Source: Stanieria cyanosphaera PCC 7437
GTDB taxonomy: Bacteria; Cyanobacteriota; Cyanobacteriia; Cyanobacteriales; Xenococcaceae
Length of the DNA stretch: 64,000 bases
NCBI RefSeq assembly: GCF_000317575.1
Contig: NC_019748.1
Coordinates: forward strand, 4,670,501 to 4,734,500
Direction: 5' to 3'
The notes below the pieces were generated by a model. The model did not search any database, was not told the origin of the DNA, and was given only the letters and a program-made list of their open reading frames with translations. Positions 5,774 to 50,819 of the stretch are shown piece by piece (the first letter of the stretch is position 1; the number at the start of each line of letters is the position of its first letter). A program made the position numbers and the translations under genes.

Positions 5774-6925
5774 ATGAAAATCTTATTTGTTATTACTGGA
5801 TTAGGAACTGGAGGAGCAGAAATGATGCTCTATAAAATTTTATCTCGAATTAATCGGGATAAGTTTGATCCAATAGTTCTTTCTTTGATGGATCGAGGAA
5901 CATTTGGCGATCGCATTGAGGCTTTAAATATTCCTGTTTATACCCTAAATATAGGGCGAGGACAGTTACCTAACCCTCAGATCATCTGGAAATTAGTTAA
6001 GCACATTCATCAACATCAACCAGATTTAATTCAAGGTTGGATGTATCATGCCAATTTAGCAGCACAAGCAGCTAGTTTTTTATCTTTAAAAAAGACTCCT
6101 GTTTTATGGAGTATTCATCATTCTATTCCTGATTTAAAATTAGAAAAACCTAGTCTACAAGCTATTATAAAACTATCTGCCCTAACCTCTAAATTTATTA
6201 AAAAAGCTGTTTTTTCTTCTCAAACTAGTCAATTACAACATCAAAAGTTAGGCTATCCTCCAGGAAAAACTTATTTGATTCACGATAGTTTTAATACTGA
6301 TTTATTTCAACCTTCCTCAGAAGCCAAAATTAGTGTTTGTCAGGAATTAAATATATCAACAGAATCTTTATTAATTGGTTTGATTGCTCGTTTTCATCCC
6401 ATGAAAGATCAAGACAATTTTTTACAAGCAGCTTCCTTAATTACTAATAATTATCCTGAAACACATTTTATTTTAGTTGGACCAGAAGTAACTCCAGAAA
6501 ATTATTTTTTATCTCAGAAAATTAAAGAATTAAATCTCGGCAATTGTGTTCACTTATTAGGAGAACGTCACGATACTCCTCGTTTAACTGCTGCTTTAGA
6601 TATTGCAACTTTATGCTCAGCTTTTGGAGAAGCTTTTCCTAATGTTGTAGGCGAAGCGATGTGTTGTGAAGTTCCTTGTGTAGTTACAGATGTTGGCGAT
6701 GCAGGTTTAATTGTAGGGGATGTAGGTAAAGTCATCCCGCCTAAAAATTCAGAAGCATTAGCTAAAGCTTGGCAAGAAATGATCGAATTAGGAAACGAAG
6801 GCAGAAATAATTTAGGCAGACAAGCAAGAGAAAGAATTGAGCAAAACTTCTCTTTAGATTCAGTTAATTCTGCTGTTCATAAATACGAAAATTTGTATTT
6901 AAGCATTTTAGCTAATAAAAATTAA
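5774..6925 (+). CDS. Glycosyltransferase family 4
   Basis: 383 residues. It begins with a Rossmann strand and the GLGTGGAEMM loop (residues 9-18). The acceptor half ends in HSIPD, and the donor half carries IARFHPMKDQDNFLQAA and a variant E-x7-E (FGEAFPNVVGEAMCCE). This is the class of GT-B enzymes that often follows initiating transferases in EPS clusters. It has 53 bp upstream, AT-rich, with AAGG about 16 bp before the start. It lies 37 bp before the sugar transferase gene, consistent with one transcript. Confidence 0.88.
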   Translation: MKILFVITGLGTGGAEMMLYKILSRINRDKFDPIVLSLMDRGTFGDRIEALNIPVYTLNIGRGQLPNPQIIWKLVKHIHQHQPDLIQGWMYHANLAAQAASFLSLKKTPVLWSIHHSIPDLKLEKPSLQAIIKLSALTSKFIKKAVFSSQTSQLQHQKLGYPPGKTYLIHDSFNTDLFQPSSEAKISVCQELNISTESLLIGLIARFHPMKDQDNFLQAASLITNNYPETHFILVGPEVTPENYFLSQKIKELNLGNCVHLLGERHDTPRLTAALDIATLCSAFGEAFPNVVGEAMCCEVPCVVTDVGDAGLIVGDVGKVIPPKNSEALAKAWQEMIELGNEGRNNLGRQARERIEQNFSLDSVNSAVHKYENLYLSILANKN

Positions 6926-6962
6926 GTCGATTAATAATAAATTTTTTTCTGATATTTTTATC

Positions 6963-48210: not shown

Positions 48211-48360
48211 CTAAACTTTAAACTGAGGCAAAATCTCTTCTTCTTGACAACCAGCTTCAATCCAAGACTGCATTTCTGGCATTTGCCAAATTTGCTCGGC
48301 ATAAGCTTGTGAAACCCTATCCAACTGTACTCCATAAGTAACAAAGCGAATTACTACAGG
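48211..48360 (-). pseudogene. Glutathione S-transferase, 3' fragment cut off by the IS607-type element
   Basis: Reading the - strand from 48360 gives PVVIRFVTYGVQLDRVSQAY, then AEQIWQMPEMQSWIEAGCQEE and a TAG stop at 48211. This is the C-terminal helix bundle of the GST whose N-terminal part is at 50316-50819. Joining the two parts across 48360/50316 restores one continuous reading frame (IADAMFAV-PVVIRF). Confidence 0.9.
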
Positions 48361-48426
48361 AGGCTGAATAAGCATTGATTTTCTTAACTATAATTCTCTA
48401 TAGTTATTCATTATGGTTAAGTTTAG

Positions 48427-49042
48427 TTGTATAGAGTTAAAGAGTTTGCCAAACTAATTAACAAATCGCCATCGACACTAAGAAGATGGGACAGAGAGGG
48501 TAGGCTTAAACCAAGTCGCAGTACAGGTAACCAAAGGTACTATACAGACGAGGATTTAAGGCTAGCTCTAAATATAGATTTACCTAGAACAACTGGTAAA
48601 ACAATAGTGTATTGCCGCGTATCTTCTAAAGGTCAGTCGCCAGAATTAGCTAATCAAGTACAAGCTATGGAGCAATTCTGGTAATTGTCAAGGTCTTCAA
48701 GTAGATGACTGGATTAAAGAAGTCGGAGGCGGTCTTAACTTTAAGCGTAAGTTATTCTTAAAACTAATGAAACAAGTACGTATGGGTGAAGTTGAAACAA
48801 TCATTGTAGCCTATAAAGACCGTCTCCGTCGCTTTGCTTTTGACTTTGTAGAGGAATTTGTTAGTTGGTATGGCTGTAAAATCCTTGTTGCTAACTGTGA
48901 GTCTTTATCGCCTCAGCAAGAAATGGTTGAAGATTTAATGGCTATTATCCACACTTTTAGCTGTCGCCTTTACGGTCTTCGTAACTACAAAAAACAATTA
49001 AAAAAAATAGTCTACTCTTCTTTGGAAAATCCAGATAAATAA
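48427..49042 (+). pseudogene. tnpA: IS607-type serine recombinase (TnpA), frameshifted
   Basis: The first part (TTG start at 48427) has a MerR-like helix-turn-helix (RVKEFAKLINKSPSTLRRWD) and the catalytic serine motif IVYCRVSSKGQ. It runs to AMEQFW and stops at 48684. The second frame continues with GNCQGLQVDDWIKEVGGGLNF, KRKLFLKLM, TIIVAYKDRLRRFAFDFVEEF and CESLSPQQEMVEDLMAIIHTFSCRLYGLR. Together they make a normal-length recombinase of about 200 residues. A one-base gain (or two-base loss) near 48675 breaks it, so the element is probably no longer self-mobile. Confidence 0.87.
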
Positions 49043-49079
49043 GGCTAAACTTTTTCATATAGACAAGTTTACGCTTCTA

Positions 49080-50306
49080 ATGTTTGCAGTTAAAAGGAAA
49101 TTAAAACTCAATAATAAAGAGAAAACCGTAATGGCTAAACAGGCTGGATTCTCCCGTGTTGTTTATAACTATGGTTTATCTTTATTCTGGGATTCTTTAG
49201 ACTGCAAGGCATCAGATAGCAAACGATTAGGTGAGATTAAAAAGTGTCTGACTAATATAACTAAGAAGCGGTCAGAGTACGCCTGGATGAATGAAATGTC
49301 GTCTAGAGTTTACCAGAACGCTTTTAGGGACTTAGCTAGTGCTTTTAAGCGTTGGCGTGAAGGTTTAGCAAATAAACCCACGCAGAAGTTAAAGAAGCAT
49401 GGGCAATCATTTACAGTTGATAGTTCTAATGGTGTAGTTTTAGTTCCAGAAGGTAAAGTAATAAAAATACCAACGCTTGGAACATTCAGACTACAAGAAC
49501 CATTAGCTGAAAGTTATATCGCTCAGACTTTTACTATTAGTTATAAAGCTGGTGATTGGTACGTATCTTTTGCAGTTAAAGCTGAAAGAATAGCACCAAT
49601 CGTTCATGAAGTTTATGATCAAACAGGCATCGACCTAGGTGTCACCTGCTTTGCCACATTATCAGATGGGACTGAAATAATAGCTCCTAAGCCATTCAAA
49701 CAAGCGAAAACCAAGCTGGCTAAATTACAATATCGAGCTAGAAATAAACTGTTAGGTAATAAAAAGCAGGGGATTAAAGCCTCTAATAATGCCAAGAAAT
49801 ACTTTCAGAAAGTAACTAAATTACACGCGAGAACGGCTAATATTCGGCAGGACTTTTTACAACAAACTACTACCAACTTACTGCGTAAGTACCATACCTT
49901 GAGAATAGAAGACCTTAATGTTAAAGGTATGATCGCTAATCGTAAGTTAGCATCTGCCATTAGTGACTTAGGATTCTATGAATTTCGTAGGTTATTAGAA
50001 TATAAAGTTAGCTGGTACGCTGGTTTTGTAGAAATAGTTGATAGATGGTATCCAAGTAGTAAGCTTTGTAGAAAGTGCAATGAAAGGCATACTGAATTAA
50101 AGCTGAAAGACAGACTGTTTATATGTCCTACCTGTAATCATACTGAATCGCGAGATTTACAGGCAGCGATTAACCTAGCTAATACACCTGAAGAATTTAT
50201 AACAACTAGGATAGGTTCTATCCGAAGTAACGCCTGCGGACTAGATAGTGCCGACACTTCTAGGATGAAACAGGAAGTAAACACTATAGTGGATAGCTAT
50301 AGATAA
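49080..50306 (+). CDS. tnpB: TnpB, RNA-guided RuvC-type nuclease of the IS607-type element
   Basis: 408 residues, uninterrupted. RuvC-I Asp in TGIDLGVTCFATL (about 185), RuvC-II Glu in LRIEDLNVKGM (about 277), a zinc ribbon with CRKC and CPTC (about 331-352), and the final Asp in ESRDLQAAINLAN are all present, so the nuclease should be active. TnpB proteins use an omega-RNA from the element's right end to cut DNA matching the flank, which helps retain the element. It starts 37 bp after the broken recombinase. The gene ends only 9 bp from the element boundary. Confidence 0.93.
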   Translation: MFAVKRKLKLNNKEKTVMAKQAGFSRVVYNYGLSLFWDSLDCKASDSKRLGEIKKCLTNITKKRSEYAWMNEMSSRVYQNAFRDLASAFKRWREGLANKPTQKLKKHGQSFTVDSSNGVVLVPEGKVIKIPTLGTFRLQEPLAESYIAQTFTISYKAGDWYVSFAVKAERIAPIVHEVYDQTGIDLGVTCFATLSDGTEIIAPKPFKQAKTKLAKLQYRARNKLLGNKKQGIKASNNAKKYFQKVTKLHARTANIRQDFLQQTTTNLLRKYHTLRIEDLNVKGMIANRKLASAISDLGFYEFRRLLEYKVSWYAGFVEIVDRWYPSSKLCRKCNERHTELKLKDRLFICPTCNHTESRDLQAAINLANTPEEFITTRIGSIRSNACGLDSADTSRMKQEVNTIVDSYR

Positions 50307-50315
50307 GTTTTATGG
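50180..50315 (+). ncRNA. Candidate omega-RNA scaffold at the right end of the element
   Basis: TnpB guide RNAs overlap the 3' end of tnpB and extend across the right end. This stretch contains clear hairpins: GGATAG-GTT-CTATCC near 50212, ACTTC...GAAGT near 50256-50279, and CTATAG-TGGATAG-CTATAG near 50284-50302. The sequence just outside (50316-50335) would be the guide. Extent and folding are inferred. Confidence 0.45.
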
Positions 50316-50819
50316 AACAGCAAACATCGCATCAGCAATAGTAAAATTTCAAAACAAAAAATCACCTTCAAAACCGAATTTTTGCCGACAATCTCGCCAA
50401 ATAAAAGTAATTCTGGCAATATCTACTGCTACTTGCGGATTCATTCCTTTTCCTGGTAATCTAGCTCGACAATTCATCGGCATTGAACTACGTAGATTTA
50501 AAAATCCTGCGTGCATTTCGCTACTTACTGAACGAGCGATCGCCCTTGCCGTAGACTCTTGAGGTAAAATATTACTATCAAAGTTTTCCGCTAAATATTC
50601 ACAAATAGCCAAAGATTCCCAAACAGTAATTTCGCCATGATGTAGAATTGGAACTTTTCCCGCTGGAGAATGTTGCAGTAATTGTTGTTTACTATTTGGT
50701 TGATATAAAGGAATCCGAATTTCCTCAAAATCCAAACCGATCTTTTTCATTACTAACCAGGGACGCAATGACCAGGAAGAATAGTTTTTGTTCCCTATAA
50801 TTAATGTAAGCTTAGTCAT
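50316..50819 (-). pseudogene. Glutathione S-transferase, 5' part, interrupted and carrying a nonsense codon
   Basis: Begins MTKLTLIIGNKNYSSWSLRP with the thioredoxin-fold N-domain (SPAGKVPILHHG, WESLAICEYLAE) and part of the helical C-domain. After DFLF there is a TGA (50349-50351) where GGA (Gly) would be expected. Past it the frame continues NFTIADAMFAV up to the element at 50316. So the gene has two lesions, the insertion and a point nonsense mutation. An open 156-residue protein is still encodable but lacks the end of the C-domain. Confidence 0.88.

What the first reader, a model, noticed from the sequence alone, without database searches (positions are those of the whole stretch)
48361..50315. 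IS607-type element with dead recombinase but intact TnpB nuclease
The serine recombinase has a single frameshift near 48675, while tnpB is complete with all RuvC and zinc-ribbon residues. Persistence of TnpB after loss of mobility is expected if it guards the occupied site or has been co-opted.
Basis: partly seen in the sequence, partly recalled or inferred. Interest (0 to 1): 0.65.

Follow-up and report, generated by a model that had tools for sequence, protein, structure and literature searches.

The report
Jumping gene stranded, its nuclease intact
A common kind of bacterial jumping gene landed in a metabolic gene of a cyanobacterium, its jumping enzyme then broke by one small mutation, while its RNA-guided DNA cutter and guide RNA still look intact; this is ordinary and probably recent, although close relatives carry a small DNA-binding protein where the jumping enzyme should be, which may be new.

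Summary
A single IS607-family copy lies at about 48363-50318 inside a glutathione S-transferase (GST) gene. tnpA is split by one frameshift (48681/48686). tnpB (49080-50306, 408 aa) is whole, with RuvC triad D185/E277/D359 and four zinc cysteines. Joining the flanks at a shared AG (not GG) restores the GST reading of relatives and puts 5'-AGGAG, a published IS607 TnpB target motif, beside the predicted guide (50321-50340). The 3' end of tnpB holds a guide-RNA scaffold with strong covariation and no Rfam match. The parts needed to cut the empty site look complete. That TnpB persisted because it guards the site or was co-opted is not shown: tnpA is otherwise well preserved (64 of 74 invariant columns), so the lesion looks recent; the lesion counts are unremarkable (P=0.26); and in a related pair with dead tnpA, tnpA is as constrained as tnpB, so dN/dS cannot decide. 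A survey of RAGATH-18-linked IS607 loci reports 30% of TnpAs as pseudogenes. New lead: in 4 of 24 clade members, including the three closest full-length relatives, a divergent ribbon-helix-helix gene stands where tnpA should be.

The parts
48361..48362 (+). left copy of the AG core dinucleotide; with the preceding AGG it forms 5'-AGGAG, the predicted TAM of the empty site
   Evidence: Joined flanks give the GST reading of relatives; AGGAG is the TAM of 18 of 22 strains in PMC11061315 (passage)
48363..48426 (+). left end with TnpA-type repeats (CTTAACTATAA...CTATAGTTATTCATTATGGTTAAG)
   Evidence: 80-87% identical over 57-109 bases to left ends of L284, L285, L286, L287
48427..48684 (+). tnpA, 5' piece (HTH and start of serine recombinase domain), ends at a stop met after the frameshift
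48686..49042 (+). tnpA, 3' piece in another frame (rest of the catalytic domain)
49080..50306 (+). tnpB, 408 aa RNA-guided nuclease, intact RuvC and zinc ribbon
50190..50320 (+). predicted omegaRNA/reRNA scaffold overlapping the 3' end of tnpB; hairpins 50209-50223 and about 50241-50264
   Evidence: MFE -32.2 kcal/mol, z -3.32; covariation on 21 sequences; model R1, which was built with this sequence in it, hits it at E=3.8e-17
50319..50320 (+). right copy of the AG core (end of element)
50321..50340 (+). predicted guide, identical to the GST side of the empty site
   Evidence: by analogy with PMC10711439 section 25
50321..50819 (-). interrupted GST gene, 5' part (ORF listed 50349-50819, in-frame TGA at 50349-50351)
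   Evidence: PF13409 E=1.7e-14
48219..48362 (-). interrupted GST gene, 3' part
   Evidence: DNA match to G005 GST at 48236-48310

Best explanation
An ordinary IS607-family insertion sequence inserted by serine-recombinase exchange at an AG dinucleotide in a GST gene. Later, and probably recently, its tnpA took one frameshift, so it cannot move by itself. tnpB and the overlapping guide-RNA scaffold are undamaged. If transcribed, TnpB should process its mRNA end into a guide RNA whose 20-nt guide (50321-50340) matches the uninterrupted GST site next to AGGAG; it would spare its own copy, because the right junction reads AACAG, and would cut an incoming or restored empty allele. Shown: anatomy, site, target geometry, RNA covariation. 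Inferred: expression, cleavage, recent timing. TnpB is still whole mainly because little time has passed since tnpA died; no special selection need be invoked.
For: Gene parts and families. Exact empty site by joining flanks, in line with 14 GST orthologue sites (14 of 20 loci examined), L101 reading ACAGGAG then a 20-base stretch with one mismatch to the guide. RNA: covariation score 0.753 against 0.193 (sd 0.024) shuffled and at most 0.213 slid. tnpA still matches 64 of 74 columns invariant in five intact TnpAs; of the 10 misses five are shared with the related copy L285 and one sits at the frameshift. Right junction lacks the TAM; the guide is otherwise found only at two 3-mismatch places without a TAM. 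Published frequency: 30% of TnpAs in RAGATH-18-linked IS607 loci are pseudo by frameshift or stop (PMC11061315, passages).
Against: GST carries a further in-frame stop, so the insertion is not brand new (the stop could also predate it). TnpB without intact tnpA is the rule in the clade as collected (23 of 24; none detected at all in 15 of 24), which would fit a longer-term benefit. TAM and guide start are transferred from other IS607 TnpBs, not measured here; nine other clade left junctions read NNGAG and none reads AGGAG. No expression data.
Confidence: 0.72

Rival explanations
1. Selected guard: TnpB is kept by selection because it destroys empty alleles and so fixes the disrupted GST locus (homing or retention) although tnpA is dead.
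For: Complete TnpB, RNA and guide with a TAM-bearing empty site; a TnpB-IS gene drive on plasmids shown with a design that isolates TnpB from TnpA (PMC11870625, preprint, passages); the 24 clade TnpBs kept for full length have no internal stop, 23 of them without intact tnpA (choosing full-length rows favours this).
Against: With tnpA dead no excision makes empty sites, and the same-genus genome G001 has almost no GST left to convert. dN/dS is equally low in broken tnpA of the G049 pair. Lesion counts P=0.256.
Confidence: 0.17
2. Non-autonomous element: ends and TnpB are intact and a related TnpA can still move it in trans.
For: Ends preserved; two G049 copies with the same insert in tnpA sit at different sites; G138 holds one copy with frameshifted tnpA and whole tnpB and a similar one with open tnpA and broken tnpB.
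Against: The only other IS607 TnpA over the family cut-off in the own genome (two identical C4 copies) has other ends and a GG-type core and is 33% identical in the DNA-binding piece; only one window-type copy exists.
Confidence: 0.12
3. Co-opted regulator or defence nuclease.
For: TnpB-only copies are common in the clade; some relatives carry a repressor-like neighbour.
Against: Active site intact, so not a dead-nuclease regulator; guide still points at the insertion site and at no other TAM-bearing place found; the element is absent from the same-genus genome.
Confidence: 0.04
4. The frameshift is a sequencing or assembly error and tnpA is intact.
For: tnpA is otherwise well preserved; reads could not be seen.
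Against: No homopolymer longer than two at the break.
Confidence: 0.06

Closest known systems
IS607-family insertion sequences (IS607 of Helicobacter pylori, ISFba1, ISXfa1)
   Same: Serine TnpA with N-terminal HTH, downstream TnpB, dinucleotide exchange without target duplication, right-end guide RNA
   Different: AG core instead of the GG of IS607 (PMC6188088 passages); tnpA frameshifted; scaffold overlaps the tnpB reading frame and is not RAGATH-18
IS1341-type and other TnpB-only elements
   Same: Functional-looking TnpB without an active transposase
   Different: Here the tnpA remnant is still nearly complete
ISDra2 TnpB (PDB 8bf8, 8exa)
   Same: Sequence relative over 14-368 (E=2.2e-41), same catalytic layout, RNA overlapping the coding sequence (stated for IS200/IS605 TnpB in PMC11061315)
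   Different: IS200/IS605 transposase partner and another TAM (recalled)
TldR, TnpB-derived RNA-guided repressors (recalled)
   Same: TnpB descendants free of transposase
   Different: TldRs have lost RuvC residues (recalled); here all three are present

Membership tests
IS607 family | TnpA = MerR-type HTH plus serine recombinase domain | tested here: met
   transpos_IS607 matched by both pieces (E=2.8e-19 and 1.3e-24, each below the whole-protein cut-off because split), MerR_1 1.1e-13; the gene is broken
IS607 family | insertion at a dinucleotide shared by both ends, no target duplication | tested here: met
   AG core, flanks join to the intact GST reading
IS607 family | short subterminal repeats bound by TnpA | tested here: inconclusive
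   similar repeats at both ends and in relatives; binding not tested
RNA-guided TnpB nuclease | RuvC D-E-D triad and zinc ribbon | tested here: met
   D185, E277, D359, C330, C333, C349, C352
RNA-guided TnpB nuclease | structured right-end RNA followed by guide | tested here: met
   structure and covariation; transcription not seen
RNA-guided TnpB nuclease | guided cleavage next to a TAM | not testable with these tools
   only the sequence AGGAG at the empty site
RAGATH-18 IS607 TnpB group | RAGATH-18 RNA outside the coding sequence | tested here: not met
   no Rfam match in the window at gathering score, none to RAGATH-18 at E<=5 in 49900-50400; scaffold overlaps the ORF
pro-Fanzor TnpBs | DPG RuvC-I motif and displaced glutamate | tested here: not met
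   DLG and IEDLN with the glutamate of the family; definition from PMC10711439 passages
TldR repressor | lost RuvC active site (recalled) | tested here: not met
   triad complete
domesticated TnpB | same genomic site kept across species, selection after tnpA loss | tested here: inconclusive
   same-genus genome G001 lacks most of GST and the element; selection test uninformative

The most novel reading that the evidence does not exclude
The window element is the tnpA-bearing member of a TnpB lineage whose closest full-length relatives have replaced the transposase by a divergently transcribed ribbon-helix-helix protein, giving a transposase-free two-gene module (repressor plus RNA-guided nuclease) that recurs in distant cyanobacterial TnpBs (10 of 209 distinct tnpB starts). 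Loss of tnpA as seen here would be the first step toward such self-regulated, possibly host-serving, nuclease modules.
Probability: 0.25. Interest if true: 0.62.

Novelty: new member of a known kind. Interest (0 to 1): 0.3.

Why it matters
The copy itself is a clean example of a decaying IS607 element with a readable empty site, TAM and guide, in a host recalled as a culturable cyanobacterium. It also gives a case against the usual argument (low dN/dS in tnpB proves selection after tnpA loss): in the one pair tested, dead tnpA looks just as constrained. The wider clade offers a guide RNA without a match in Rfam 15 and a recurrent RHH-TnpB pair that would make the question of transposase-free TnpB function directly testable.

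Tried and rejected
Module exchange between tnpA and tnpB: the two trees of 10 loci differ (AU p=2e-4 and 6e-6), but a 24-taxon TnpB tree forced to group the window lineage with the L285 group is not rejected (AU p=0.10), so no mosaic is claimed for the window. Shared tnpA death followed by spreading of L285 and L287: suggested by the common insert, weakened by equal tnpA and tnpB constraint. RAGATH-18 identity of the RNA: no match. Retargeted guide: none found. Omega from IQ-TREE codon runs: not printed by the program, so only pairwise estimates are used; dS is saturated for the window against G002. A first count took L301 as having an intact tnpA and used it and L065 among six intact references (61 of 69 columns); a recheck showed L301 frameshifted near its start, and L065 carries an in-frame stop, so the recount with five intact TnpAs (64 of 74) is used. 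Literature for an RHH-TnpB pair: the paper search 'TnpB' with 'ribbon-helix-helix' (3 papers) and with 'CopG' (4 papers); only PMC8987985 was opened (passages), and the passages do not describe the pair; the other six were seen as listings only.

Full report
What is there. The window lies in a 5.54 Mb genome of six contigs, the largest 5,041,209 bases; its TnpB relatives are mostly cyanobacterial by record title. From the sizes I recall Stanieria cyanosphaera PCC 7437; no call names it. At 48427-49042 are two frames of one IS607-type serine recombinase, and at 49080-50306 an open tnpB of 408 codons. A TnpA HMM matches 48430-48681 and 48686-49012 without stops inside either piece, so the gene is broken once. 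TnpB keeps D185, E277, D359 and the four zinc cysteines, all invariant over the 13 aligned sequences, and all 49 columns that are invariant in 23 other clade members.

Insertion site. The element interrupts a glutathione S-transferase gene on the minus strand, next to a gene whose product I read as HisG. The site was recovered in 14 of 20 GST loci given to the script; the other 6 gave no motif match. In L101 it reads ACAGGAG followed by the guide sequence with one mismatch. The GST half carries an extra in-frame TGA at 50349-50351, so the host gene has decayed further. The same-genus genome G001 keeps only about 29 bases of GST beside hisG, and its counterpart of the left flank, up to window 48124, lies about 23 kb away, so there is no occupied or empty allele to compare in the one same-genus genome held.

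TAM and guide. IS607 TnpBs of the RAGATH-18 group use 5'-AGGAG (18 of 22 strains) or GAGGG (PMC11061315, passages). In ISXfa1 the fixed nucleotide right of the element belongs to the scaffold, not the guide (PMC10711439, section 25 read). Applied here, the empty site reads AGGAG followed by 50321-50340. In the occupied state the right junction reads AACAG, so the element would not be expected to cut itself. Nine other left junctions of the clade read NNGAG: AAGAG in six, TAGAG in two, GAGAG in one (two of the six, L124 and L294, by eye and less sure). The window is the only AGGAG. The guide has one exact place in the genome, its own flank, and two 3-mismatch places, neither behind AGGAG or NAGAG.

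Guide RNA. Rfam has no match in the window at gathering scores and nothing convincing at relaxed threshold. Clade members share two hairpins at the 3' end of tnpB. On 21 sequences, 13 pairs form in 91.6% of 273 cells, 12 pairs show double changes, and the covariation score is 0.753 (shuffled mean 0.193, sd 0.024, 0 of 500 as high; slid versions at most 0.213). I wrote this structure from the sequences, which favours it on cells paired, less on double changes; RNAalifold on the same alignment found the same hairpins plus an outer helix. The window row keeps all pairs of helices 1 and 3; helix 2 pairs in a register shifted by one in its own fold. A covariance model finds the RNA in 33 of 60 genomes, the own one included with one place.

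How common is loss of tnpA. Of 24 with a full-length tnpB and at least 1.2 kb upstream, tnpA is intact in 1 (L296), broken or a remnant in 8 (window, L301, L286, L285, L287, L284, L130, L124), and undetected in up to 2.2 kb upstream in 15. Dropped before this count: L289 (tnpA open, tnpB broken, the reverse case), L297, L291, L298 (fragments), L122 (TnpB start missing, no tnpA, no RHH), L129 and L133 (no upstream sequence), L290 (no tnpB). Collecting by TnpB favours intact tnpB, so the asymmetry is partly ascertainment. A published survey of RAGATH-18-linked loci, 97.8% of strains Firmicutes, already reports 80% of loci with both genes and 30% of those TnpAs pseudo.

Is tnpB under selection after tnpA died? 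For the window copy this cannot be shown. The pair window/G002 gives dN/dS about 0.03 with saturated dS, which reflects the long past. The best internal control is L285/L287 in G049: both have broken tnpA with the same palindromic insert, yet dN/dS is 0.119 for tnpA (171 codons) and 0.128 for tnpB (395 codons), permutation p=0.57. Dead tnpA thus looks as constrained as tnpB in this one pair. The window tnpA matches 64 of 74 columns invariant in five intact TnpAs; five of the ten misses are shared with L285 and one lies at the frameshift. Two null lesions (one tnpA, one GST) and none in tnpB has probability 0.256 by length alone.

The RHH lead. Upstream of tnpB in L282 (G002, the closest relative, 78%), L288, L202 and L283, a divergent ORF of 44-57 aa starts 40-56 bases away. 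Across the loci held, 10 of 209 distinct tnpB starts with at least 260 bases upstream have one; these TnpBs are as little as 40% identical to their best query. Pfam: DUF6290 in 8 of 10 and RHH_1 in 4 of 10 members at E<=0.01; of the four scanned with cut-offs shown, only two reach any (RHH_1 in L202, HicB in L283). The AlphaFold model (pLDDT 83) has top PDB neighbours that are ribbon-helix-helix proteins (TacA, PutA, CopG), probability up to 0.99 but E-values of 0.1 and above. In the TnpB tree window and G002 group together, then L288 with L202; all three relatives have RHH and no tnpA, while the window has a tnpA remnant and no RHH. I infer an autoregulator of tnpB; nothing here tests it. PADLOC gave no match for the one RHH protein scanned.

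Verdict. The mechanism most likely is an ordinary IS607 element that recently lost tnpA while TnpB and its guide remain fit, by sequence, to cut the empty site. Persistence by guarding or co-option remains possible but is not supported beyond that.

Noticed in passing
L282, L288, L202, L283; also L338, L335, L145, L195, L152, L341: A small divergent ribbon-helix-helix gene sits directly upstream of tnpB; in the four clade members with it no tnpA was found; 10 of 209 distinct tnpB starts have one.
   Followed up: partly
L285 and L287 (two copies in G049): Both tnpA copies carry the same roughly 95-base palindromic insert at the same place although the elements sit at different sites and tnpA looks constrained; independent insertion or gene conversion is unexplained.
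   Followed up: partly
L289 and L301 (both in G138): Two similar copies with complementary damage: L289 has an open tnpA and a broken tnpB, L301 a frameshift near the start of tnpA and a whole tnpB.
   Followed up: partly
window 50349-50351 and L312: GST has an additional in-frame stop here, and GST is almost wholly lost at a rearrangement breakpoint in the same-genus genome G001.
   Followed up: partly
G000:C4:13019-14691 and 130731-132403 (L033, L034): Two 100% identical 1,881-base stretches hold an intact IS607 element with GG-type ends at two sites of C4: a recently active element unlike the window copy in its ends.
   Followed up: partly
L202 (IMG/VR contig of 107,653 bases): A contig in the viral collection carries a TnpB 60% identical to the window's with the RHH gene, plus a second TnpB-like match and a second RHH match.
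   Followed up: no
L282 near 6900-6950, L133 near 1330: A GC-rich repeat (GCGTTGGGCGGGTTCCCCGA-like) lies inside the guide-RNA scaffold region of these tnpB genes.
   Followed up: no
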